Assembly (NCBI RefSeq): GCF_041468085.1
Contig: NZ_CP121017.1
Coordinates: 4,747,501-4,811,500 of the forward strand
Direction of reading: 5' to 3'
DNA from: Tistrella mobilis
GTDB lineage: Bacteria; Pseudomonadota; Alphaproteobacteria; Tistrellales; Tistrellaceae
DNA: 64,000 nt
Below the pieces are notes generated by a model. The model ran no database searches. It had not been told where the DNA came from and was given only the letters and a program-made list of their open reading frames with translations. The stretch's first letter is position 1, and each line of letters begins with the position of its first letter. Shown here piece by piece: positions 933-24,554 of this stretch. Made by a program: the position numbers and the translations under genes.

Positions 933-1013
933 CGGCGGCACCGCCGGCGGGTCCCAGGCCTGGCCGCCATCACCCGCCCGCCTGCCATCACCCGACGACC
1001 AGACGAGACCACG

Positions 1014-2963
1014 ATGCCCAGCGATCTGCCCCGTTCCATCCCGGCCACGCCAGAGGCCGTCGTCGATCCGTCGGCGGTCGACGTCATCGTCATCGGCGGC
1101 GGCCATGCCGGCGTCGAGGCGGCCGCCGCTGCGGCACGGGTGGGGGCGCGGACCATCCTCGTCACCCACACCTTCGCAACCATCGGCGCGATGTCGTGCA
1201 ACCCGGCGATCGGTGGGATCGGGAAGGGCACGCTGGTGCGCGAGGTCGATGCCCTCGACGGGCTGATGGCCCGGGTGATCGATCGGGCGGGGATCCAGTT
1301 CCGGGTGCTGAATGCCAGCCGCGGCCCTGCCGTGCACGGGCCGCGCGCCCAGGCCGATCGCCGGCTTTATGCCGCGGCGATGCAGAATCTCATCGCCGGC
1401 ACTGCCGGGCTCGACGTGGTCGAAGGCGCGGTCGATGACCTGATCATGGCGGAAGAGGGCACGGCCCCGCGGGTTGCCGGGGTGGTGCTCGCCGATGGCC
1501 GCCGGATCCGGGCGGCCGCCGTGGTGCTGACCACCGGCACCTTCCTGCGCGGCATGATCCATATCGGCGACGCGCGCATCCCTGCGGGCCGGGTGGGGGA
1601 GGCGCCGGCCGCGGCGCTGGGGGCGCGGCTCGAAGCTCTGGGCCTGCCGATGGGTCGGTTGAAGACCGGCACGCCGCCCCGGCTCGACGGCCGGACCATC
1701 GATTGGGCATCGCTGACGGAGCAGCATGGCGACACGCCGCCGAAGCCCTTCTCGGTGCTCACCGACCGGATCACGGTGCCGCAGATCGCCTGCCATATCA
1801 CCGCGACCACGCCGGCGGCTCATCAGGTGATCCGCGATCATCTGCACGAGAGCGCGGTCTATTCCGGCCGCATCGCCGGGCGGGGCCCCCGCTACTGCCC
1901 CTCGATCGAGGACAAGGTGGTGCGCTTCGCCGATCGCGACAGCCACCAGATCTTCCTGGAGCCCGAAGGCCTCGACGATCACACGGTGTATCCCAACGGC
2001 ATTTCCACCAGCCTGTCGGCCGAGGCCCAGGCCCGGATGCTCCGCCATATCCCGGGGCTGGAGCGGGTCTCGATCATCCGGCCGGGCTATGCGATCGAAT
2101 ACGACTTCGTCGATCCGCGATCGCTGCTGCCGACGCTGGAGAGCCGGGTGATGCCCGGCCTTTACATGGCCGGCCAGATCAACGGCACCACCGGCTATGA
2201 AGAGGCGGCGGCGCAAGGTGTGCTGGCCGGTGCCAATGCCGCGCTGGCGGCGGGCGAGGCCGGCGGTGATCGCCGTCAGGGCGCCCGGTTGCTGCCCGAC
2301 CGCGGCCGTTCGCTGACCGGGGTGATGATCGACGACCTCACCACCCGGGGCGCCGACGAGCCTTATCGCATGTTCACCTCGCGCGCCGAATACCGGCTGC
2401 TGCTCAGGGCCGACAATGCCGACCTGCGGCTGACGGGCGAGGCGATCGCCCTGGGGCTGGTCGGTGCCGAACGTCGTGCCGCTCATGAGGCGAAGCTGGC
2501 GGCCCTCGATGATGCCCGGCATCTGGCCCGCAGCCTGACCCTGACGCCGGAACAGGCCCGCACCCATGGTATCCCCGCCAATCGTGATGGCCGGCCGCGC
2601 TCCCTGCACCAGCTGCTGGTTCATGCTGAGGCGACCCGTCTGGTGCTGACCGGCATCTGGCCCGAGCTGGCCCGGATCCGCGCCGACGTCTACGAGCAGA
2701 TCGAGATCGAGGCCCGCTATGACGGCTATCTCGGTCGCCAGGAGGCGGATGTCTCTGCCTGGCGGAGAGAGGGGGGGCTCGCCATTCCGCCCGGCTTCGA
2801 CTATGGCCGTGTCGGCGGCCTGTCGGCCGAGATGCAGGAGAAGCTGAACCGGAATCGGCCGGCGACGATCGCCGCCGCTCAGGCAATCCCCGGGGTGACC
2901 CCGGCGGCGCTCAGCCTGGTGATCGGCGCCATCCGGCGCGGCGCGGCCCTGGCAGCGGAGTAG
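1014..2963 (+). CDS. mnmG: tRNA uridine-5-carboxymethylaminomethyl modification enzyme MnmG
   Basis: This is the FAD-dependent partner of MnmE; the complex installs the carboxymethylaminomethyl group on U34 of tRNAs. The 649-residue product fits the family (about 620-650). The N-terminal dinucleotide-binding motif GGGHAGVEA is at residues 28-36, followed by the conserved [13 protein letters not shown] segment near residue 62. The C-terminal tRNA/MnmE-binding region contains [11 protein letters not shown]. An upstream in-frame ATG at 891 would add 41 residues reading through the parS-like site; 1014 is preferred because the family begins just before the FAD motif. It ends 5 bp before rsmG, suggesting cotranscription. 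Confidence 0.96.
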
Positions 2964-2968
2964 GGCAG

Positions 2969-3697
2969 ATGGCACGCAAACCCGATGCCCGTCGCGGCGG
3001 CCCCAGGCCTGCGGCTCAGCCGCGCGCTGCCGGGCCGGCCGGTCCAGCCGGCGCCGACCACGACATCATCCGGCCGCGCATCGATGCGCTGCTTGCCGGG
3101 GTTCCACGTGAAACTCTCGACCGGCTGGAGATTTACGCCGAAAGGCTCATCCGCTGGCAGGGGGCGATCAATCTGGTGGGCCCCGCGACCCTGCCTGAAC
3201 TCTGGCGCCGGCATATGCTCGATTCGGCCCAGCTTCTGCCGCTGATCGGTCCGGTCGCCGGCCGGCGTCTGGTCGATCTGGGCTCCGGTGCCGGCTTCCC
3301 CGGGCTGGTGTTGGCGGCGCTGGCTGATCTGGACGTCCATCTGGTCGAAAGCGACACCCGCAAGGCGATCTTCCTGCGGGAGACCGCCCGGGCGATGGGC
3401 ATCGCCGTCACCGTCCATGCCGAGCGGATCGAGCGCCTGAAGCCCCTGGATGCCGACCTTGTGTCCGCCCGCGCGCTTGCCCCTTTGGACAAGCTTCTTG
3501 AGATGGCCATTCCGCTTGCCCGCCCTGATGCCGTATTCTGGTTTCTGAAAGGCGCCCAGGCCGATGCCGAGATTGCAGCCGCCCGCACCCGCTGGACAAT
3601 GCAGGTGGTATGCCATAGAAGTATGACCGACGAGGGTGGCGTCATCCTTGAAGCGAAGGGGCTGTCTCGTGTCCAAGACCGTGACCAATCCCGCTGA
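2969..3697 (+). CDS. rsmG: 16S rRNA (guanine527-N7)-methyltransferase RsmG
   Basis: RsmG methylates N7 of G527 in 16S rRNA using S-adenosylmethionine. The 242-residue product has the SAM motif LVDLGSGAGFPG at residues 101-112 and the family's preceding signature INLVG...RHMLDSAQL. An N-terminal extension of about 30 Pro/Ala/Arg-rich residues is extra. The segment VPRET (residues 45-49) is encoded by a parS-like sequence, so the DNA site constrains the protein here. The 3' end overlaps the preferred parA start by 29 bp, consistent with one mnmG–rsmG–parA–parB transcript. Confidence 0.95.
   Translation: MARKPDARRGGPRPAAQPRAAGPAGPAGADHDIIRPRIDALLAGVPRETLDRLEIYAERLIRWQGAINLVGPATLPELWRRHMLDSAQLLPLIGPVAGRRLVDLGSGAGFPGLVLAALADLDVHLVESDTRKAIFLRETARAMGIAVTVHAERIERLKPLDADLVSARALAPLDKLLEMAIPLARPDAVFWFLKGAQADAEIAAARTRWTMQVVCHRSMTDEGGVILEAKGLSRVQDRDQSR
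3101..3114. promoter_or_regulatory. parS-like centromere site 2, inside rsmG
   Basis: A second exact copy of the 14-bp core GTTCCACGTGAAAC lies within the rsmG coding sequence, 568 bp before parA. It encodes Val-Pro-Arg-Glu-Thr of RsmG. The identity to the site at 918-931 and the closeness to parAB support a ParB-binding role. Confidence 0.85.
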
Positions 3698-4493
3698 TGC
3701 GGCGCCTCAGGGCACCGGTCGCGTGCTGGCCATCGCAAACCAGAAGGGCGGCGTCGGTAAGACCACGACCGCAATCAATCTCGCGACCGCGCTGGCTGCG
3801 GCGCGCAAGCGGGTTCTGGTGATCGATCTCGATCCGCAGGGCAATGCGTCGACCGGGCTGGGCATCGGTGCCAGCCAGCGGGATCCGTCGAGCTATGACG
3901 TATTGATGGGCGAGGCGAGCCTTGCCGAGGCGATCGTCGAAACCGATGTGCCCGGGCTGGCGGTGGTGCCGGCTGTGGTCGACCTGACCGGTGCCGAAAT
4001 CGAGCTGATCGAGCGCCCGGCCCGCGAACGCCGGCTGCGCATGGCGCTGGGTGCCGAGGGACTACCGCAGTACGACTACATCTTCATCGACTGCCCGCCT
4101 TCGCTCGGCATCCTGACCCTGAATTCCCTGGTCGCCGCCGATGCGGTGCTGGTGCCGCTGCAGTGTGAGTTCTTCGCGCTCGAAGGCGTTAGCCAGCTGG
4201 TTCGGACCGTCGACCGGGTGCGTCGTTCGCTCAATCCGCGGCTCGACATCCAGGGTGTGGTGCTGACCATGTTCGACAACCGCAACAACCTGTCCAATCA
4301 GGTGGCGGCCGATGTGCGCAACTTCTTCGGCGACAAGGTCTACAAGACCGTCATCCCGCGCAATGTCCGCGTCTCGGAAGCGCCCAGCCACGGCAAGCCG
4401 GTGCTGCTCTATGATCACCGCTGCGCCGGGGCCAAGGCCTATATCCATCTGGCGGGTGAGGTGCTGAAGCGCGAACGGGGGGTGGCCGCGTGA
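3669..4493 (+). CDS. parA: Chromosome-partitioning ATPase ParA
   Basis: ParA is a deviant-Walker ATPase that binds DNA non-specifically and moves ParB–parS complexes for origin segregation. The 274-residue product has the deviant Walker A motif KGGVGKTT at residues 26-33, then DLDPQGNAS and the IIDCPPSLG-like motif (FIDCPPSLG). The GTG at 3669 is chosen because AAGGGG lies about 8 bp upstream; an earlier in-frame GTG at 3636 lies deeper inside rsmG and has no comparable site. The stop overlaps the parB start by 4 bp, so translation is probably coupled. Confidence 0.95.
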   Translation: MSKTVTNPADAAPQGTGRVLAIANQKGGVGKTTTAINLATALAAARKRVLVIDLDPQGNASTGLGIGASQRDPSSYDVLMGEASLAEAIVETDVPGLAVVPAVVDLTGAEIELIERPARERRLRMALGAEGLPQYDYIFIDCPPSLGILTLNSLVAADAVLVPLQCEFFALEGVSQLVRTVDRVRRSLNPRLDIQGVVLTMFDNRNNLSNQVAADVRNFFGDKVYKTVIPRNVRVSEAPSHGKPVLLYDHRCAGAKAYIHLAGEVLKRERGVAA

Positions 4494-5422
4494 GTGCGGA
4501 AGAGACCGGCGGCCGCAAGCGCGGCCTGGCGCGCGGCCTGTCCGCGCTGCTTGGTGATACGGCGATCGAGGATGCGGCCCCCGCGGCCGCAACCGCCGAT
4601 GTCCGGATGATGCCGGTAGAGCGGCTGCGCCCCGGCCGCTATCAGCCCCGCCGGCATTTCGACGAAGAGGCCCTGTCGCAGCTGGCCGCCAGCCTGCGTG
4701 AACGTGGTGTGGTCCAGCCGATCCTGGTCCGGCCGCTCGATGACGGCGGGTTCGAAATCGTCGCCGGCGAACGTCGGTGGCGGGCGGCGCAGCTTGCCCG
4801 GCTGCACGAGGTTCCGGTCATCGTCCGCCATATGGCGGATCATGATGCGCTGGAAATCGCCCTGGTCGAGAACATCCAGCGCCAGGATCTGACGCCGCTG
4901 GAAGAGGCTGACGGCTATCGCCGGCTGATGGGGGAGTTCTCCTACACCCAGGAGGAACTCGGCCGGGTGATCGGCAAGAGCCGCGCCCATGTCGCCAACA
5001 TGCTCCGCCTGCTGAACCTGCCCGATGCGGTCAAGGAGATGCTCGACGACGGCCGGCTGTCCATGGGGCATGCCCGGGCGATCGCCACGGCTGAAGACCC
5101 TTCGGCCCTGGCGAAACGCATTGCCGATCGGGGGCTGACGGTGCGTGAGGCAGAAACTCTCGCACGGGGCGAAGCGGAAAAGCGGGCGACCCGCGATGGC
5201 AGCCAGCGCAAGCCTGTCGGTGGCCGGCCGCGCCGGGCCGAGGCCGCTGGTGGTTCTACCAAGGACAGCGATACACTGCGCCTGGAAGAGGATCTGAGCG
5301 AGAGCCTGGGGCTCAAGGTCTCGATCAACCCGATCTCGCCGACCGCCGGCTCGATGACCATCGCCTATGGGTCTCTCGAAGACCTCGATGACCTGCTTGC
5401 CCGGCTGGGCGGGCGGGGCTGA
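4490..5422 (+). CDS. parB: Chromosome-partitioning protein ParB (CTPase)
   Basis: ParB binds parS, loads as a CTP-dependent clamp and spreads along DNA to form the partition complex. The 310-residue product starts with the typical [13 protein letters not shown] segment that contacts ParA. The CTP-binding motif GERRWRAA is at 93-100, [14 protein letters not shown] follows near 127-140, and a helix-turn-helix lies at about 151-178. The C-terminal dimerisation domain is present. The start is a GTG overlapping parA by 4 bp behind a G-rich ribosome-binding region. Two parS-like sites lie just upstream. Confidence 0.96.
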
Positions 5423-10365: not shown

Positions 10366-10899
10366 GGCCGTTCCAAACCTCTCTGGCTATTGTCCGACGT
10401 GGTCCCGCCGGCGTTGTCTCTGGTCCCGACAGGGCGTCGCCGAAATCTGTCCGAGAGAGGCATTTGCACTCCGTCGGATGCTTCGGTCGGCTGAACTATA
10501 TGGCAAGCCGCTTCCTGCCTCAACCGAAGCCGATAGCCCGCCGTCCGTGGCACCGGGCAGCCCCGGGGACCGGATCAGGGGGCCGTGACGCCGCCGTGTC
10601 ATCCCTGTTGCAATCCTGCTACATTGTGACGGAAATCACTGACGCGTCGTATTGCGCCGCGTTGACGGCGCGTGCGCTGCGGAAGAACATGAACTTGCCG
10701 CATGGGCGAATTCCCCGCACGCCCGGCGTCCGGATGGCGGCCAAGACCGTCGACCGTCAAAGAGCTTCCGGCCAGCATCAGGCCAATCATGACCAGGCCG
10801 GAACCCGAAGCGGGCCGGCTGACCAGATCGTATCCCGGACGTCCCGGCACCCGGCCGGATTGAAGATTTCTGAACGTTCTCACCAGGGGACCCGACCCG
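10366..10899. other. Porin 1 upstream region without a convincing gene
   Basis: This 534-bp gap separates the DUF3576 start from porin 1 and must hold both divergent promoters. The only clear signals are the promoter-like sequence at 10662-10690 and the AGGGGA ribosome-binding site just before the porin ATG. Short open frames here look random. The distance from the promoter implies a porin leader of about 200 nt. Confidence 0.6.
10662..10690 (+). promoter_or_regulatory. Putative porin 1 promoter
   Basis: TTGACG (10662-10667), a 17-bp spacer and GAACAT (10685-10690). The -35 is strong and the -10 is weak, but the same TTGAC[G/C]–17–GAACAT layout recurs before porin 2. This supports it as a shared sigma-70-type promoter. 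Confidence 0.45.
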
Positions 10900-11979
10900 A
10901 TGAAGAAGATCCTGCTCGGCAGCACTGCCATCGTCGCCGCTGCCGCCGCTTTCGCCGCTCCCGCTTCGGCGGCCGAGAAGATCAAGCTCGGCCTCGGCGG
11001 CTATTATCAGAGCGCCTTCGTCCTGATCGACGAGGATGTGGCAGATACCCGCACCGACAGCATCAAGCAGGAAGGCGAGATCCACTTCCTGGGTGAGACC
11101 ACGCTCGACAACGGTGTCACCGTCGGCGTGAACGTGCAGCTCGAGGGCTACACCACCGGCGACCAGATCGACGAGCACTTCGTCTATTTCGAGGGCGGCT
11201 TCGGCCGCGTGCAGCTGGGCGCCGCCGACTCGGCCGCCTATCTGATGCACTATTCGGCCCCGACCGCGATCGCAGGTCACGGCGTCGACAGCCCGAACTT
11301 CTTCCATGCCTCGCAGCCCGGCACCAATGTGCTGGCCTCGAACTACACCTTCCTGAACACCACCGGCGACGCCAACAAGCTGACCTATTTCACCCCGCGC
11401 TTCGCGGGCTTCCAGCTGGGCCTGTCGTACACGCCCAGCCTCGCGGCCGGCACGGGCGGCTCGTCGAACTCCTATGGCAACCTGCCGGATAACACCCCGG
11501 GCCAGCAGGAGCAGATCGTCGAGATCGGCGCCAACTACGTGAACAGCATCGGCGGCGTCGATGTGGCCTTCGCGCTGGGCTACCTCACCGGCAAGCAGGA
11601 AGTCGATGCCGCAGGCTTCGACGATCAGGAAGCCTTCACCGTGGGCGCGCAGCTGGGCTATGCCGGCTTCACCTTCGGCGGTGGCTACCAGAAGAACAAT
11701 ATGGGCCTGCAGCTCGAAGACGACATGGAGCAGTGGAACGTCGGCCTGACCTACGGCTTCGGTCCCTTCACCGTCGGCACCGGCTATGGCTATGGCAGCC
11801 AGACCAGCGGTGCCGGCGTCGAGGACGAGCTGTCGACCTTCGAGATCGGCGGCACCTACGAGATGGGCCCGGGCGTCAGCCTGATGGCCGGCTACTTCCA
11901 CTACGACTTCGACTCGGATCTGGCGGCGAACCGGAACACCTCGGACGCCTTCATGGTCGGTACCTCGCTCGAATTCTGA
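10900..11979 (+). CDS. Outer-membrane porin, paralogue 1
   Basis: A 359-residue gram-negative porin of the alphaproteobacterial type, expected to form a trimeric beta-barrel channel. It has a cleavable signal peptide (MKKILLGS..., predicted cut after ASA near residue 24). The mature protein starts AEKIKLGLGGYYQS, alternates amphipathic beta strands and ends in Phe (SLEF), the usual signal for the BAM assembly machinery. It is closely similar to the next two genes throughout. AGGGGA lies before the ATG. Substrate is not predictable. Confidence 0.92.
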   Translation: MKKILLGSTAIVAAAAAFAAPASAAEKIKLGLGGYYQSAFVLIDEDVADTRTDSIKQEGEIHFLGETTLDNGVTVGVNVQLEGYTTGDQIDEHFVYFEGGFGRVQLGAADSAAYLMHYSAPTAIAGHGVDSPNFFHASQPGTNVLASNYTFLNTTGDANKLTYFTPRFAGFQLGLSYTPSLAAGTGGSSNSYGNLPDNTPGQQEQIVEIGANYVNSIGGVDVAFALGYLTGKQEVDAAGFDDQEAFTVGAQLGYAGFTFGGGYQKNNMGLQLEDDMEQWNVGLTYGFGPFTVGTGYGYGSQTSGAGVEDELSTFEIGGTYEMGPGVSLMAGYFHYDFDSDLAANRNTSDAFMVGTSLEF

Positions 11980-11991
11980 TCGGGCAGTCGT

Positions 11992-12016
11992 GGACGCCGC
12001 AGTTTCCGCGGCGTCC
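11992..12016 (+). terminator. Hairpin after porin 1
   Basis: GGACGCCGC (11992-12000) pairs perfectly with GCGGCGTCC (12008-12016) around a 7-nt loop, starting 13 bp after the porin 1 stop. It is followed by ATCCCCC rather than a T-run, so termination may be partial. Confidence 0.6.
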
Positions 12017-12119
12017 ATCCCCCTCACATAACCGTCTGACGGCCGATCCGGCCCTGCCCGGAGTTGTTGCTTCACAGCCACAGTGTGGCGGGAAGCGCGA
12101 CGGCAGGGGTGCACCTCGC

Positions 12120-12148
12120 TTGACCACCGCATGCGCGGGATGGAACAT
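12120..12148 (+). promoter_or_regulatory. Putative porin 2 promoter
   Basis: TTGACC (12120-12125), a 17-bp spacer and GAACAT (12143-12148), the same arrangement as before porin 1. The implied leader is about 155 nt. Confidence 0.45.
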
Positions 12149-12309
12149 GGCGACGCACAGCGCTTCGGATACGGCTTCGACGGCACCCTATTTACGGGTC
12201 GTATCACCTGGCGCTCGATGCCGCGCCGGGCTTTTTTTGCTGGTCTGATGGCAGTTCGCCAGAGGGCCGGCCTCAAGCCTGGCTCCACCGGTTCTAGGGG
12301 AACTGACCG

Positions 12310-13410
12310 ATGAAGAAGATTCTGCTTGGCACGTCGGCCATCGTCGCCGCCGGCCTGCTCGCCGCGCCGGCGTCGGCCGCTGAGAAGATCAAGCTGGGCC
12401 TGGGTGGCTACTACCAGAGCGCCTTCGTCCTGATCGACGAGGACGTCGAGAACACCCGCACCGACAGCATGAAGCAGGAAGGCGAGATCCACTTCCTGGG
12501 TGAGACCACGCTCGACAACGGCATCAAGGTTGGTGTCAACGTCCAGCTCGAGGCCTACACCACCTCGGATCAGGTCGACGAGCACTATGTCTACTTCGAG
12601 GGTGGCTTCGGTCGCGTCGTCCTCGGCGCCGAGAACTCGGCTCCGTACCTGATGCACTATTCGGCCCCGTCGGCCGTGGTGGGTCATGGCGTCGACAGCC
12701 CGAACTTCTTCCATGCCAGCCGTCCGTCCTACTCGGTTGGCGGCGCCACCGTTCAGAACGCGCTCGCCTCGAACGCGACCTTCCTGAACGCGACCAGCGA
12801 CGCCAACAAGCTGACCTACTTCACCCCGCGCTTCGCCGGCTTCCAGCTCGGCCTGTCGTACACCCCGAGCCTCCAGGGCGGTCGTGGTGGTTCGTCGGGT
12901 GCCTATGGCAACCTGTCGGACAACAACGTCGGCGCGCAGGAGAAGCTCGTCGAGGTCGGCCTGAACTACGTCAACACCTTTGGTGGCATCAATGTGGCGG
13001 CCTCGGCCGGCTACAGCGGCGGCTCGCTTGAGCAGGAAGCTGCCGGCTTCGACGATCTCGAAGCCTGGAGCCTGGGTGCGAACCTCGGTTATGCCGGCTT
13101 CACCTTCGGTGGCGCCTACATGACCAGCAACCAGGGCCTGCAGCTCGAAGACGATCTCGAGCAGTGGAACGTCGGCCTGACCTATGGCTTCGGCCCGTAC
13201 AAGGTCGGTGTTGCCTACGCCGATGGCGGCGTCACCCTCGGCACCGGTCGCCAGGACGAGCTGAAGATGATCGAGGTCGGCGGCACCTATGCCCTCGGCC
13301 CGGGCGTCAATCTGATGGCCGGCTACTACTACATCGATTTCGACTCGGACGATGCGGGTCTCCGCAACGAGGCGAACTCGTTCATGGTCGGTACCGCCCT
13401 GTCGTTCTGA
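12310..13410 (+). CDS. Outer-membrane porin, paralogue 2
   Basis: A 366-residue porin nearly collinear with paralogue 1. The signal peptide ends ASA around residue 23 and the mature start is again AEKIKLGLGGYYQS. It shares the segments GEIHFLGETTLDNG and LTYFTPRFAGFQLGLSYTP, and ends TALSF with the terminal Phe needed for barrel assembly. It differs by an insertion near residue 140 (a Ser/Tyr/Gly-rich loop), probably a surface loop. The ATG follows AGGGGAACTGACCG. Tandem duplication is the simplest origin. Confidence 0.92.
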   Translation: MKKILLGTSAIVAAGLLAAPASAAEKIKLGLGGYYQSAFVLIDEDVENTRTDSMKQEGEIHFLGETTLDNGIKVGVNVQLEAYTTSDQVDEHYVYFEGGFGRVVLGAENSAPYLMHYSAPSAVVGHGVDSPNFFHASRPSYSVGGATVQNALASNATFLNATSDANKLTYFTPRFAGFQLGLSYTPSLQGGRGGSSGAYGNLSDNNVGAQEKLVEVGLNYVNTFGGINVAASAGYSGGSLEQEAAGFDDLEAWSLGANLGYAGFTFGGAYMTSNQGLQLEDDLEQWNVGLTYGFGPYKVGVAYADGGVTLGTGRQDELKMIEVGGTYALGPGVNLMAGYYYIDFDSDDAGLRNEANSFMVGTALSF

Positions 13411-13456
13411 TCGACGGAGCAGCCGATCGGCCGGGTCACCGGCCAGACGTGAAAGA

Positions 13457-13486
13457 GGGGATGGGCTTCGGCCCATCCCCTTTTTT
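13457..13486 (+). terminator. Intrinsic terminator of porin 2
   Basis: GGGGATGGGC (13457-13466), the stable TTCG tetraloop, the perfect complement GCCCATCCCC (13471-13480) and six T's. This is a textbook Rho-independent terminator. Confidence 0.95.
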
Positions 13487-13668
13487 CTTGTCTGCGAGTC
13501 TGGTCGGACAGGGGGCGGAATGGTTGCACTGCACACCCGGGAAGGTCCGCAGGATCCCGCGGAATCCGGCACGGAATGCCGCACTGCAACGGTATACCGT
13601 TCGCGCCTGCGCTATGTGGCATTGGTGACACAGTGCGCGTCAACCGACACATCGGCGATCCCGGTTTC

Positions 13669-13697
13669 TTGACGACCCTCACCAGCCCGCGTTTATT
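13669..13697 (+). promoter_or_regulatory. Putative porin 3 promoter
   Basis: TTGACG (13669-13674), a 17-bp spacer and TTTATT (13692-13697). It lies 152 bp before the porin 3 ATG, a distance like that of the other two porins, but its -10 is different. Confidence 0.4.
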
Positions 13698-13849
13698 TGG
13701 TGCGTCTCATGTGACGATGATCACGAAAACCCCGGGAGCGGGTGACGAAGATCACGTCCATCAAGCATCAGCCTTCGGGAGCACGGGCCCCGTCGGTGTA
13801 TCGTCCGGGCAACACCGCCGGGCGACCTCGATCGAGAGTGAGGGAGAGC

Positions 13850-14968
13850 ATGAAGAAGATTCTCATCGGCACCACGGCACTCGTCGCCGTCGGCCTCATC
13901 GCCGGCCAGGCTTCGGCGGCGGAGAAGATCAAGCTGGGTCTGGGCGGCTACTATCAGTCGTTCTTCAAGATCACCGACCAGGACGAGGTCAACGGCGTCG
14001 AGTACCGCTCCGACGAGATGGTTCAGGAAGGCGAAATCTTCTTCCTGGGCGAGACCGTCCTCGACAACGGCCTGAAGGTCGGCGTGCAGGTGCAGCTCGA
14101 GGGCTACACCACCGGTGACCAGATCGACGAGCACTATGTCTACTTCGACGGCTCGTGGGGCCGCGTGCTGCTGGGTGCCGAGAACTCGGCCCCGTATCTG
14201 ATGCACTATGCCGCGCCGACCGCGATCGCCGGCCATGGCGTGTCGTCGCCGAACTTCTTCAACTTCTCGACCGGCACCAACCTCGCCGGCCGCGTTGGTC
14301 AGGCGCCGAGCACCCTGATCAACAACACCTCGGACGCCAACAAGCTGACCTACTTCACCCCGCGCATGGCCGGCTTCCAGCTCGGTCTGTCGTACACCCC
14401 GACCGTGAAGGCGGGTGTCGCGGCCGGCCAGAACGGCAGCGGCGGCGGTTGGTCGGGCTCCTATGGCAACACGGCTGACAACCAGCCCGGTCAGCAGGAG
14501 CAGATCGTCGAAATCGGTCTGAACTACGTCAACAAGCTGGGCCCGGTCGATCTGGCCGTGTCGGGTGGCTACCTGAAGGGCAGCCAGGAAGTCGACACCG
14601 CTGGCTTTGACGACCTGCAGGTCTGGAGCCTGGGCCTGAATGTCGGCTTCTCGGGCTTCACCTTCGGCGGTTCGTATGTGAACGACAACCGCGGCCTCGA
14701 CGGCAACAACGACATCACCGGCTGGGACGTCGGCCTGGTCTATGCCTTCGGCCCCTACAAGGTCGGCGCGGCCTATGCCAACCATCAGCGTGAGTTCGAC
14801 GTTGGTGGCGACGACGAGATCAAGTTCTACGAGATCGGTGGTTCGTACGCGATGGGCCCGGGCATCAGCCTGAATGCGGGCGTGCAGTTCCTCGATGCCG
14901 ACAGCGACCGCGTTTCGGCTCGTCAGGACGGCACCTCGTTCCTGGTCGGTACCGCTCTCAGCTTCTGA
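13850..14968 (+). CDS. Outer-membrane porin, paralogue 3
   Basis: A 372-residue porin of the same family. The ATG at 13850 follows AGGGAG at a normal distance and opens a signal peptide (MKKILIGTTAL...) ending near ASA; an in-frame ATG at 13742 would only prepend a non-signal sequence. The mature protein starts AEKIKLGLGGYYQS and ends TALSF. It is the most diverged of the three, with changes in the putative loops (for example near residues 145-165, Gly/Ser-rich). It has its own promoter-like sequence and terminator. Confidence 0.92.
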   Translation: MKKILIGTTALVAVGLIAGQASAAEKIKLGLGGYYQSFFKITDQDEVNGVEYRSDEMVQEGEIFFLGETVLDNGLKVGVQVQLEGYTTGDQIDEHYVYFDGSWGRVLLGAENSAPYLMHYAAPTAIAGHGVSSPNFFNFSTGTNLAGRVGQAPSTLINNTSDANKLTYFTPRMAGFQLGLSYTPTVKAGVAAGQNGSGGGWSGSYGNTADNQPGQQEQIVEIGLNYVNKLGPVDLAVSGGYLKGSQEVDTAGFDDLQVWSLGLNVGFSGFTFGGSYVNDNRGLDGNNDITGWDVGLVYAFGPYKVGAAYANHQREFDVGGDDEIKFYEIGGSYAMGPGISLNAGVQFLDADSDRVSARQDGTSFLVGTALSF

Positions 14969-21211: not shown

Positions 21212-21760
21212 ATGAGCCAGCCAGAGACCAGAGACGAGAGCCGGCCATCTTCCGACGGTCCGCTCATTTTCGATGCGCTGCTGACCCCCCATCGCTCCCT
21301 GCCGCCCAGCGGGTTCAGATGGGTGATGTTCGGCATCGCAGGCGTGCTCGCGCCCATGGGCATCTATTTCATGACCCTGGGCGCCTGGCCGGTCTTCGGC
21401 TTCTGCGGGCTTGAAATCCTGCTGATCTGGCTGGGCTTCCGCGCCAGCTATATCAGCGGCCGCGCGTTTGAGCGGCTGCACCTCACCCATGAACGGCTGC
21501 GGGTGGAACAGACCGACCATCGCGGCCGCACCCGCGCCCATGATTTTCAGCCCTACTGGCTGCGGGTGGAACTGGTGGAGCCCGATGCCGGCGAGGAAGA
21601 CGGCTTCGGCCCGCGCGAACTCGCCCTCACCAGCCATGGCCGGCGGCTGATCATCGGCCATTTCCTGACGCCCGAGGAACGGCGCGACCTGGCCCGGGCG
21701 CTGGAAACCGCGCTGCACCGGGCCAGGATGCCGCAGCCGACGGAGACGCTGCTCGCCTGA
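21212..21760 (+). CDS. DUF2244 membrane protein
   Basis: A 182-residue protein of the DUF2244 family (function unknown), identified by its layout: a short cytoplasmic N-terminus, two hydrophobic segments at about residues 36-75, and a C-terminal soluble domain with LHLTHERLRVEQTD. The last 33 residues (150-182) recur exactly, as a fragment, 2 kb downstream. The gene is intact, but its 3' end forms the left border of the AT-rich insert. Divergence from nth is a usual arrangement. Confidence 0.87.
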   Translation: MSQPETRDESRPSSDGPLIFDALLTPHRSLPPSGFRWVMFGIAGVLAPMGIYFMTLGAWPVFGFCGLEILLIWLGFRASYISGRAFERLHLTHERLRVEQTDHRGRTRAHDFQPYWLRVELVEPDAGEEDGFGPRELALTSHGRRLIIGHFLTPEERRDLARALETALHRARMPQPTETLLA

Positions 21761-21761
21761 G
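21666..21761 (+). repeat. Left copy of the 96-bp direct repeat (att-like)
   Basis: These 96 bp are the 3' end of the DUF2244 gene plus one base after the stop, identical to 23742-23837. Extending left, 7 further bp match apart from one silent C/T difference at 21665 (Leu CTG/TTG). To the right, similarity ends at once. The pattern is that of an attachment site used by an element that rebuilds the 3' end of its target gene. Confidence 0.93.
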
Positions 21762-22278
21762 GTGAACTGATCGATAGTGTTCGCCCACGCTCGGTGCATA
21801 TATATATTTTAAATAAATTTTCAGATATGAAGAGTCTTAATTGAGACACCAAGAATTAATTATTTCTAGAGTCCAAATATTTTTGACAAAAAATTTGCCA
21901 ATTTATTCCCTGGGATTCGTTTTCATTTCCACCTCAACGCCATATGAGATATGCTCTGAAACCGTATTTAAACCCCAAGGCGCAAGGTGCTACGACACGG
22001 ATTTGTTGCTGGTCAGCCTGTGTCGTTTCCGCCGCAAAAACGAAGCTTCAGGCGCTATGGATCTGGAAACCATGGCGTTTGCAACCATTTTCCGATGGCG
22101 TAGCTGGGCGCACTTCGATAACGTCCACTAGACAAACTCCATCGTGCTGAAGGGGGAAGAGCTTTAGCAGCTCAAGCTCACAGCCACTGCGTGTCTTCTA
22201 AAGCACGCCGATCTAAAAATAAGAGCTGACAAAGCCTTTCCTTATGCACTCATCGGCCAATGAATGGGAAAGTATGAG
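21762..22278. other. AT-rich left part of the insert, no convincing gene
   Basis: This stretch opens with a run of TA repeats and A/T tracts (21798-21835) and has a TTGACA at 21883 without a good -10 at normal distance. Open frames at 21841-22131 and 21944-22150 lack ribosome-binding sites and recognisable sequence, so I do not call them. A structured RNA cannot be excluded. Confidence 0.5.
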
Positions 22279-22515
22279 ATGAATGCGATGCGCAAGAATC
22301 GTGACTACGCCATTTATGGTCAGATGCGTCCAGATCGGGAAGCGTCCTGGTTAGACAGCTTTAGTGCGTTGACCCTTGACTTTAGCCCTACTCCATCTAG
22401 CTCTTATCGTAGCGACGGGCTATTCGGCGATGCCGTAAAAATACGACAGGACGCTGACAAAGTTATGAAAAATGCTGTATTGCGTCACATATTGTCACGG
22501 TCGCAGAATTTCTAA
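22279..22515 (+). CDS. Small hypothetical protein in the AT-rich insert
   Basis: A possible 78-residue protein that I do not recognise. It is rich in polar and charged residues, has no membrane segment and ends HILSRSQNF. Three in-frame ATGs (22264, 22279, 22288) compete; 22279 is preferred because GGAAAG lies at a workable distance. It ends 26 bp before the DUF2335 gene on the same strand, so the two may be cotranscribed. Codon use is like the insert, not the host. Existence as a real gene is uncertain. Confidence 0.45.
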   Translation: MNAMRKNRDYAIYGQMRPDREASWLDSFSALTLDFSPTPSSSYRSDGLFGDAVKIRQDADKVMKNAVLRHILSRSQNF

Positions 22516-22541
22516 TTTGGAAATTTTTATGAGATAATTTC

Positions 22542-23171
22542 ATGAACGAACGCACGCCGAATCCAGAAGACAGCGAGATGGCTGAGCGCTTGAACGAGGT
22601 CATCCGCCAGAACGCCATCTCGAAACTTAAAGATCTGAATTCTAATACGGTTAAATCTAACAACAGAGAAGCGCTCGCCCAGCTTGTTGCAGATGTGGCG
22701 AGCGATTCTCTGTTGGAAATCATTGAAATTTCAGAGATTGAGAAAAGCCACTACCATATGGGTCCTTTACCGGATCCGGCTACGCTTCGTGGATATGACG
22801 AGGTTGTTCCAGGATCGGCAGCGCAAATCGTTAATTCCCTTGCAGAAGAACAGCGGCATCGGCACAATTGGGAGAATAAGGCGCTATCCTCTGCTTCCAA
22901 AGAACGTGTAAGACGAGACTTAATTGCCAGTTTTCTTGCCTCTCTAGCCTTCGTGGCTGGCATATATCTTATATATCTAGGAAATTCATGGGAGGCAGTC
23001 GCTCTTATTTTAGGCGTCGTCTTGGGTGGCAGTGCTCTTTTTCTGGGTAGACAGATACTTGTCAGATTGGGACAAAATATTCTGGTAGAGAGCCAATCAA
23101 ACCATGATCCCTTGAACTCTAATGGTCGCAGGGAAAATATAAAATCCCAGAAAAAAATTCGAAAAAAATAG
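22542..23171 (+). CDS. DUF2335 membrane protein
   Basis: The 209-residue product fits the DUF2335 family of predicted membrane proteins of unknown function. The diagnostic part is MGPLPDPATLRGYDEVVPG (residues 73-91) followed by an EEQRHRH helix (102-108). Two hydrophobic helices at about 127-147 and 150-168 form a hairpin, and the tail is basic (KKIRKK). The first 70 residues are probably helical and acidic. The ribosome-binding site is weak. Families of this kind are often scattered on mobile DNA, which agrees with its low G+C and the flanking direct repeats. Confidence 0.75.
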   Translation: MNERTPNPEDSEMAERLNEVIRQNAISKLKDLNSNTVKSNNREALAQLVADVASDSLLEIIEISEIEKSHYHMGPLPDPATLRGYDEVVPGSAAQIVNSLAEEQRHRHNWENKALSSASKERVRRDLIASFLASLAFVAGIYLIYLGNSWEAVALILGVVLGGSALFLGRQILVRLGQNILVESQSNHDPLNSNGRRENIKSQKKIRKK

Positions 23172-23734
23172 TCGATCTGAATTTACGAATATTTCGAATC
23201 CCCGGTTTTTCCAGCCGTCAGATTGACAAAGCTACCGCTTAAGAAAATGGGCGGATTTGAAAATCAGCCTGCGCCCAAGCCGTAGATATCCGCTGCATAA
23301 TCTGAAAAATTATTTACCCTTGCACAAAAAAGGTGTGAAAGCCAAGCCGCCGTCCCGTCTCGAAATGGATCAGCACCGAGAAATACATCTGGCCAGAGCG
23401 GGCTGATTATCACTCTGGCGCCAGGGAGCTTGCAACATCTTCGCTGTCAACAGGCCTAGCGCCGACAGGCCACGAGGCAGACTTGGCCACATCCCGACAG
23501 GGTACCGGTCGCCTTGAGAGATGGGCGAGCGGAAAACCGATAGACGACGCCTGATCAACGCCGCCAACTCGGAGCGGCTGCCCTGTCGACGACACTTCTG
23601 CGGCCTAAAAAGCCTCAACCATGCCGCGTGACGTTTCACGAGCCCGGCCGATGATGACTCCGACGTCGGTCACCACGCAGGGATGTTACCCGACCCCTAC
23701 CGCAATGGCTGGCAATTGCCCCAAATTATCAGCT
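23172..23734. other. Right part of the insert, no convincing gene
   Basis: The first 200 bp stay AT-rich; from about 23380 the G+C rises towards host level. The minus strand has a 60-codon open stretch (about 23271-23447) without a start codon or ribosome-binding site that I can support, possibly a gene remnant. A perfect palindrome GGCAATTGCC occupies 23711-23720, just before the right repeat. No recombinase remnant was recognised. Confidence 0.45.
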
Positions 23735-23836
23735 CATTTCTTGACGCCCGAGGAACGGCGCGACCTGGCCCGGGCGCTGGAAACCGCGCTGCACCGGGCC
23801 AGGATGCCGCAGCCGACGGAGACGCTGCTCGCCTGA
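23735..23836 (+). pseudogene. Displaced 3' fragment of the DUF2244 gene
   Basis: The fragment encodes the last 33 residues of DUF2244 (HFLTPEERRD... to ...TETLLA) and its stop codon, identical in protein and differing by one silent base. It has no start of its own and is a by-product of the insertion upstream. If the insert arrived by site-specific integration, this is the ancestral end of the gene. Confidence 0.9.
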
Positions 23837-23837
23837 G
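23742..23837 (+). repeat. Right copy of the 96-bp direct repeat (att-like)
   Basis: Identical over 96 bp to 21666-21761. It marks the right boundary of the insert. The sequence to its right (23838-24430) is also AT-rich, so the boundary separates two unusual segments rather than insert and normal chromosome. Confidence 0.93.
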
Positions 23838-24123
23838 CATGCAGTGTCTGCAGCAGCCTGACTGCCCAAGGCGATTCCCGAGTATTGCGACGCTGAAACG
23901 TGTCGCTCTATTTAAAAATTTCGGCAGACAAAACATGGGCCGCCTCCCCGGCGCCGATCCCACGCAACCTTTGCGGCATAAGTCCTTCTAAAACTACCGG
24001 GTGATAAGACAAAATGCCGCGAGCCGCGTATGATCACATGGAAGATTATTCGCCGGGCTTGATGTGTCGTATATTTTTTCGGGACTGCCGTTTCGCGCAT
24101 GATATACGAAGAGAGCTCAATAT

Positions 24124-24167
24124 GGGTTGAAGTTTAACGAGGCTGCGCAGCCTTCAATTTTCAACCC
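24124..24167. repeat. Nested inverted repeat
   Basis: Outer arms GGGTTGAA (24124-24131) and TTCAACCC (24160-24167) enclose the perfect 14-bp palindrome AGGCTGCGCAGCCT (24140-24153). TTGAAG (24127-24132) can alternatively pair with CTTCAA (24152-24157), so two structures compete. Confidence 0.75.
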
Positions 24168-24241
24168 AAACCGTGAAGCCACTTGAACGGGTTCATTCTT
24201 CATACTTAACCGCCTCAGCCGAGCGAAATTCTTCTCATAGA

Positions 24242-24263
24242 AGTAAATTATCAATAATTTACT
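24242..24263. repeat. Perfect AT-rich inverted repeat
   Basis: AGTAAATTAT and ATAATTTACT form 10-bp arms around a 2-bp centre. It could be a protein-binding site; a 2-nt loop is poor for a hairpin. Confidence 0.7.
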
Positions 24264-24430
24264 CGTTATAGTAGTCGCGTGTCTCCAGTTACACGTCAAG
24301 GTATTTATGCTTGTGTATGAACACGCATTAGCTGTAAATGACTCTGATAGCTTCGTTTTATCCCCATGATTATTGACGAAATCATGGTGGTCGACTAACG
24401 ATCAGGTAGAACAGAGTCTGAAGAAAGCCA

Positions 24431-24454
24431 ACACGCCACCCGCCGATGGCGTGT
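24431..24454 (+). promoter_or_regulatory. Hairpin upstream of the comM-like gene
   Basis: ACACGCCA (24431-24438) and TGGCGTGT (24447-24454) form a perfect 8-bp stem with an 8-nt loop, exactly where G+C returns to host level. No T-run follows, so it is more likely a leader structure or operator than a terminator. Confidence 0.5.
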
Positions 24455-24554
24455 CGCGAAGGGGTTCGTGCGTGCGGACGTTGTGGACAGATCCACCGAC
24501 CCGGATCGACAGATGCACCGATGGCCTCCCGGCCGGAAACCGGGGGCGACGCCG

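What the first reader, a model, noticed from the sequence alone, without database searches (positions are those of the whole stretch)
21666..23837. AT-rich insert flanked by a 96-bp direct repeat that restores the end of the DUF2244 gene
Sequence: 21666-21761 and 23742-23837 are identical over 96 bp, with one silent mismatch further left. The 2.0 kb between is visibly AT-rich in an otherwise G+C-rich genome. Established knowledge: integrative elements often use the 3' end of a gene as attB and carry a copy that rebuilds it. Inference: this is a small non-autonomous or decayed integrative element, and the DUF2244 gene would be a new type of attachment site.
Basis: partly seen in the sequence, partly recalled or inferred. 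Interest (0 to 1): 0.75.

Follow-up and report, generated by a model that had tools for sequence, protein, structure and literature searches.

The report
Recombinase-less mini-element ending a gene
A 2 kb piece of foreign DNA carrying a phage-type membrane-protein gene pair has slipped into the end of a bacterial gene while supplying a replacement for the end it displaced, and three unrelated bacteria carry equally tiny inserts with the same gene pair built the same way, so this looks like one of a scattered set of cargo-only integrative elements that encode no recombinase of their own.

Summary
In detail: 21659-21761 and 23735-23837 are a 103-bp direct repeat with one silent mismatch, and 96 bp are identical. 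Two congeners, including T. mobilis KA081020-065, show the empty site, so the 2,076-bp unit is an insertion at the 3' end of the DUF2244 gene that rebuilds the gene. The AT-rich stretch 23838-24430 is native and not part of the insert.

The cargo is a two-gene module: a small ORF (22264-22515) and a DUF2335 membrane protein (22542-23171). DUF2335 corresponds to PHROG 3996, filed under "moron". No recombinase, or remnant of one, was found.

Going beyond the finding, I surveyed 41 DUF2335 loci. Three unrelated bacteria have the same architecture: about 1 kb, small ORF plus DUF2335, no recombinase, flanked by 36, 175 or 184 bp copies of the 3' end of an HNH, WYL or hydrolase-like gene. In all four cases homology ends 0-2 nt after the stop codon, and a relative has the empty site.

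Best reading: a cargo-only (CIME-like or prophage-end-derived) integrative element, integrated by a recombinase supplied in trans or since lost. Homologous-recombination routes are not excluded. DUF2244 is not a recurrent site (0 of 40 other alphaproteobacteria).

The parts
21212..21760 (+). DUF2244 gene, the target; intact, its last ~96 bp most likely supplied by the element
   Evidence: Pfam PF10003 E 1.5e-44; intact in congeners with single copy of the end
21659..21761 (+). gene-proximal copy of the direct repeat (attL-like junction)
21762..23734 (.). unique part of the insert, 1,973 bp, absent from congeners; unmatched in plasmids, phages and 288 other alphaproteobacterial genomes (one chance-size 27-bp match only)
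22264..22515 (+). small ORF (83 aa), position and C-terminal pattern match the small partner gene found upstream of DUF2335 elsewhere
   Evidence: weak sequence similarity (8-20% identity to partners), no family hit of its own
22542..23171 (+). DUF2335 membrane protein gene (209 aa)
   Evidence: Pfam PF10097 E 2.8e-11; phrog_3996 'moron ... membrane protein' E 8.6e-23
23172..23734 (.). non-coding or decayed right part of the insert, GC 0.55-0.63 at its end
   Evidence: no ORF with an integrase match
23735..23837 (+). distal copy of the repeat (attR-like junction): left edge element-derived, remainder most likely the original gene end
   Evidence: native downstream sequence follows it
23838..24467 (.). 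native intergenic region upstream of comM, not part of the element
   Evidence: conserved in G001 and G002

Best explanation
The 2 kb unit is a cargo-only integrative element. Shown: it is an insertion exactly at the 3' end of the DUF2244 gene, it leaves that gene intact, and the empty site exists in relatives. Shown: its recognisable coding content is a phage-type two-gene module (small ORF plus DUF2335 membrane protein), with no recombinase. Inferred: a circular form carrying a partial copy of the DUF2244 3' end recombined with the chromosomal gene inside the 96-bp identity. The 5' part of the gene was then completed by the element's copy (left repeat), and the displaced original end was left at the far side (right repeat). 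Inferred: the recombinase was an integrase supplied in trans by a phage or integrative element, or belonged to a larger parent that decayed to this attL/cargo/attR remnant because the cargo was worth keeping. Inferred from phage position, from a TIR-DUF2335 fusion in an integron cassette, and from neighbouring toxin-antitoxin cargo in related hot spots: the cargo is a lysogenic-conversion or anti-phage membrane module. The same architecture arose independently at three other protein genes in other bacteria, so this is one instance of a recurring design.
For: Empty site in two congeners. Homology ends 1 nt after the stop codon. Change from 5 differences in the ~22 bp at the repeat's left edge to 0 in the next 96 bp (Fisher p 1.5e-4) suggests that the distal copy's edge has another origin, as in an attR hybrid. 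Three independent parallels with the same module, no tyrosine recombinase and an empty site in relatives: L064 (hydrolase-like gene, 184 bp, 94%), L119 (WYL gene, 175 bp, 96%), L114 (HNH gene, 36 bp, 89%). In all four, homology ends 0-2 nt after the stop codon. In L064 the native post-stop sequence follows the distal copy, and the gene-proximal copy has a different terminus. In L119 all 7 differences between the copies are synonymous, so both copies most likely diverged as coding sequence before being joined. Control: excluding the window, 3 of 36 other testable DUF2335 positions versus 1 independent two-copy case at 362 control positions (p 0.003). DUF2335 is phrog_3996 and in temperate phages sits between the lysis genes and attP or next to the integrase.
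Against: No recombinase is encoded in the insert, and no element carrying one was found at any DUF2244 end. At L064 and L119 the repeats are long enough for homologous recombination, and their inner edges are sharp. L119 is a messy hot spot (CRISPR repeats, HigBA, later deletions). The home-made integrase model may miss divergent or serine recombinases. The anti-phage role is untested: the window protein has no PADLOC hit. The small ORF of the window is only weakly like its supposed relatives.
Confidence: 0.6

Rival explanations
1. Homologous or homology-facilitated illegitimate recombination. A DNA fragment or circle ending in a DUF2244 3' end plus cargo was taken up and joined by the host's recombination machinery, with no integrase at any step.
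For: No recombinase in any of the four inserts. Repeats of 96-184 bp are long enough for RecA. Homology-facilitated illegitimate recombination is a described process (PMC3240628 abstract). Sharp inner edges at L064 and L119.
Against: Homology stops within 0-2 nt of the stop codon in all four cases, although relatives share DNA beyond it. The 36-bp case (L114) is short for homologous recombination. The degraded left edge in the window is not expected of a simple illegitimate joint.
Confidence: 0.22
2. Decayed prophage end. A full temperate phage integrated at the DUF2244 end and everything except the conversion genes next to attR was later deleted. This is a sub-case of the main reading rather than a separate alternative.
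For: DUF2335 is a phage gene family found next to attP or integrase in several temperate phages. The ~500 bp on each side of the gene pair shows no recognisable gene, as in decay.
Against: No phage or integrase remnant in the insert besides the pair. Four independent cases each reduced to the same two genes in 1-2 kb would need strong selection.
Confidence: 0.3
3. Local duplication of the gene end around pre-existing native DNA, or an assembly artefact.
For: Only the repeat itself.
Against: Empty sites in two congeners at this locus and in relatives of all three parallels. The insert differs in composition and is absent from relatives.
Confidence: 0.02
4. Transposon with an unusually long target-site duplication.
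For: Direct repeats flank the insert.
Against: No transposase family hit; no terminal inverted repeats at the ends in the repeat listing; repeat lengths differ (36-184 bp) and always end at a stop codon; I know of no transposon making ~100-bp duplications.
Confidence: 0.02

Closest known systems
CIME (cis-mobilizable element; decayed ICE/IME keeping attL and attR), as defined in PMC5704250
   Same: att-like repeats flank cargo; no integration or transfer genes; inserted at a gene 3' end
   Different: no tandem ICE/IME partner here, far smaller (2 kb), cargo is a phage-type pair, and the same cargo recurs in independent minimal cases
e14 element / phage 21 in the icd gene of E. coli (PMC4759930 for icdA/icdC; phage 21 from general knowledge)
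   Same: element replaces the 3' end of a protein gene and leaves the displaced end at its far side
   Different: e14 is a prophage-size element with its own recombination genes; this insert has two small genes only
Additive flexible genomic islands at tRNA genes (repeats of the tRNA 3' end bounding cargo, PMC10872708) and Dehalococcoides ssrA islands (PMC3146451)
   Same: copies of a gene 3' end delimit cargo segments; only some of the ssrA islands carry the integration module
   Different: targets here are protein genes, repeats are longer, and there is a single cassette
Tycheposons (PMC10872708)
   Same: cargo-carrying elements bordered by a conserved chromosomal gene
   Different: 4-200 kb, tRNA targets, tyrosine recombinase present
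Integron gene cassettes
   Same: small mobile cassettes; L109 holds a TIR-DUF2335 gene as a cassette next to IntI
   Different: no IntI nearby, gene-end restoration instead of attC-based capture

Membership tests
Integrative element restoring a gene 3' end | direct repeat, one copy being the 3' end of an intact gene | tested here: met
Integrative element restoring a gene 3' end | empty site with one repeat copy in relatives | tested here: met
Integrative element restoring a gene 3' end | encodes an integrase (autonomous members) | tested here: not met
   hence described only as non-autonomous
CIME | keeps attL and attR, lacks recombination and transfer genes | tested here: met
   repeats kept, no such genes; functionality of the sites not tested
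CIME | derives from an ICE or IME | tested here: inconclusive
   no ICE/IME remnant; cargo is phage-type
Prophage remnant | phage genes beyond the cargo | tested here: not met
   no other ORF of the insert resembles an integrase; DUF2335 itself is phrog_3996
Integron cassette | attC site and nearby IntI | tested here: inconclusive
   no tyrosine-recombinase match in the insert; attC structure not modelled
Transposon | transposase, or terminal inverted repeats | tested here: not met
Non-autonomous element mobilised in trans | excision or integration by a helper recombinase | not testable with these tools
   needs experiment

The most novel reading that the evidence does not exclude
There is a widespread, overlooked class of 1-2 kb recombinase-free mobile cassettes. 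Each consists of a two-gene phage-conversion, defence or toxin-antitoxin module plus a copy of the 3' end of a protein gene. They insert precisely at gene ends, using helper integrases or host recombination, and restore the gene each time.
Probability: 0.3. Interest if true: 0.8.

Novelty: new variant of a known kind. Interest (0 to 1): 0.6.

Why it matters
If right, small defence-type gene pairs move between bacteria as units too small for island surveys to see. One E. coli defence-island survey required at least ten genes (PMC10121019). The hallmark is simple and computable: a gene's last 30-200 bp repeated within about 3 kb, homology ending at the stop codon, and no recombinase in between. 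The whole class could therefore be counted in existing genomes. The finding also gives precise borders for testing what the uncharacterised DUF2335 pair does.

Tried and rejected
Similarity of the insert to plasmids and phages at DNA level: none; to 288 other alphaproteobacterial genomes: none beyond one chance-size 27-bp match. Att sequence in IMG/VR: none. DUF2244 as a recurrent site: 0 of 40. Repeats at L056 and L121 are dispersed palindromic repeats, and those at L109 are integron attC-like repeats with IntI; none of these were counted as parallels. The second DUF2335 pair of this genome (L049) lies beside a tRNA-Met 3' end but has no repeat. Repeats of the HNH gene end at the G726 and G725 inserts: none found. 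Solved-structure relatives of DUF2335: only weak hits. Rfam on the insert: nothing significant. My first integrase profile was built from wrong frames and was replaced.

Full report
Observation. The repeat is real and at the stated coordinates. 21659-21761 and 23735-23837 match over 103 nt with one silent mismatch (C21665/T23741), and 96 nt are identical. Identity ends one nucleotide after the TGA stop of the gene at 21212-21760, which is DUF2244 (Pfam E 1.5e-44). The insert is AT-rich for about three quarters of its length. The AT-rich DNA to its right (23838-24430) is not part of it.

Empty site. Only two other genomes of the genus are held, G001 and G002; G002 is Tistrella mobilis KA081020-065. 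Both have DUF2244 with one copy of the end, followed directly by the homologue of 23838 and by the conserved intergenic region before comM. Aligned stretches show about 95% identity on the left and about 90% on the right, with nothing between. The 2,076-bp unit is therefore an insertion, not an ancient duplication. The repeat occurs nowhere else in the genome in full.

Content. The insert encodes a DUF2335 protein (22542-23171; Pfam E 2.8e-11; phrog_3996, 'moron, auxiliary metabolic gene and host takeover', membrane protein, E 8.6e-23). It is preceded by an 83-aa ORF (22264-22515). No other ORF has an integrase match, and the two further ORFs tried gave no Pfam hit. Nothing similar was found in plasmids or phages, and among 289 alphaproteobacterial genomes only the own genome and one 27-bp match appeared.

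Parallels. I collected 41 DUF2335 loci from the window's genome, from samples of 289 class-level and 397 phylum-level genomes, and from one plasmid. Most carry a small ORF of 60-120 aa just upstream of the DUF2335 gene, often overlapping it. The small proteins share a weak consensus, GS...P...DW..G.D...A. Three loci repeat the window's architecture. L064: last 184 bp of a hydrolase-like gene (no Pfam hit; 'hydrolase-like' is my reading of the sequence), 94%, insert about 1 kb, DUF2335 broken by a stop. L119: last 175 bp of a WYL-domain gene, 96%. L114: last 36 bp of an HNH gene, 89%. Tyrosine recombinases were seen at only two of the 41 loci: IntI of a chromosomal integron (L109) and a tRNA-Leu island (L120).

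Controls. With the same test at 362 other positions of these loci, repeats of 30 bp or more appeared at seven. Four are dispersed multi-copy repeats and three are one place in L106. Excluding the window itself, 3 of 36 against 1 of 362 gives p 0.003, and the unfiltered counts 6 of 36 against 7 of 362 give p 0.0004. The numbers are small, but a feature not used in the test agrees: in all four cases homology ends 0-2 nt after the stop codon.

Empty sites of the parallels. L114: G724 and G722 read straight through with one 36-bp copy. L064: G744 and G164 read straight through. L119: G699 has the WYL stop followed by the far flank. G702 and G697 share the insert at the same spacing; G700 keeps the gene pair without the distal copy, and G704 keeps the small ORF and only part of the insert. 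So presence, absence and decay are all seen.

Direction of exchange. In L064 the native sequence after the stop follows the distal copy, and the gene-proximal copy ends differently, so the element brought its own gene end. In L119 the two copies differ at seven positions, all synonymous, and encode the same protein, so they most likely diverged while coding, in different genomes. In the window the distal copy's left edge has five differences in about 22 nt and none in the next 96 (p 1.5e-4), the pattern of a hybrid junction. I therefore infer crossover inside the repeat, with the gene end supplied by the element. The SNP pattern inside L119 alone does not fix the crossover point, because the distal copy also has private changes.

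Where the recombinase is. Unknown. The cargo's usual home suggests phages: in Streptococcus phage Javan433, Staphylococcus phages IME1365_01 and IME-SA4, and Pseudomonas phage MD8, the pair lies at the end of the genome, beside an annotated attP, or next to the integrase. That favours either a remnant kept for its cargo or a cassette moved in trans. Homologous routes without any integrase remain possible, mostly for the two long-repeat cases.

Function. Not known for DUF2335. Hints only: L109 is a TIR-DUF2335 fusion in an integron cassette (Pfam TIR_2 E 1.6e-25), and the WYL and HNH gene ends in relatives hold HigBA, HipBA or a HATPase/DUF4325 pair. One table of T6SS effectors labels DUF2335 '(phospholipase)' (PMC6267618), which I could not check. 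I take an anti-phage or conversion role as most likely, unproven.

DUF2244 is the target here, but none of 40 other alphaproteobacterial DUF2244 genes had a gene-end copy or integrase within 7 kb, so it is not a general hot spot. Only two papers of the library mention DUF2244, neither about attachment sites by title or abstract.

Verdict. Observation confirmed and interpretation supported. The added result is the recurrence of the same minimal architecture with the same cargo at three other genes.

Noticed in passing
window 24240-24470: Native non-coding stretch upstream of comM is 96-98% conserved between Tistrella species in parts, more than most neighbouring coding DNA, and folds better than shuffles (z -3.5); no Rfam match. 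Possibly a leader or small RNA.
   Followed up: partly
L049 9914-10631 (G000:C4 ~3.09 Mb): A second small ORF + DUF2335 pair in the same genome lies just beside the 3' end of a tRNA-Met gene; T. mobilis has a different pair there that looks like BrnT/BrnA by eye.
   Followed up: partly
L109 7770-8510: A TIR-DUF2335 fusion gene sits as a cassette in a chromosomal integron with IntI at 11505-12467.
   Followed up: partly
L239 (reverse strand), 721 to about 2250 in reverse coordinates: The same HNH gene end as in L114 carries, in a relative, a different AT-rich two-gene insert (HATPase-like + DUF4325) without a detectable repeat.
   Followed up: partly
L242 (reverse strand), 1007-5208 in reverse coordinates: WYL gene end followed by HipBA and, beyond a BCCT-type transporter (by eye), an 82% copy of the last 60 bp of the WYL gene, as if an older and larger insertion had occurred there.
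   Followed up: partly
L119 7743-7836: Two CRISPR-like repeats lie inside the insert next to the distal gene-end copy, and a Cas1-like gene lies beyond the WYL gene.
   Followed up: no
window 10897-14697: Three tandem paralogous genes (segments 64-89% identical, ~1.4-1.55 kb apart), porin-like by eye.
   Followed up: no
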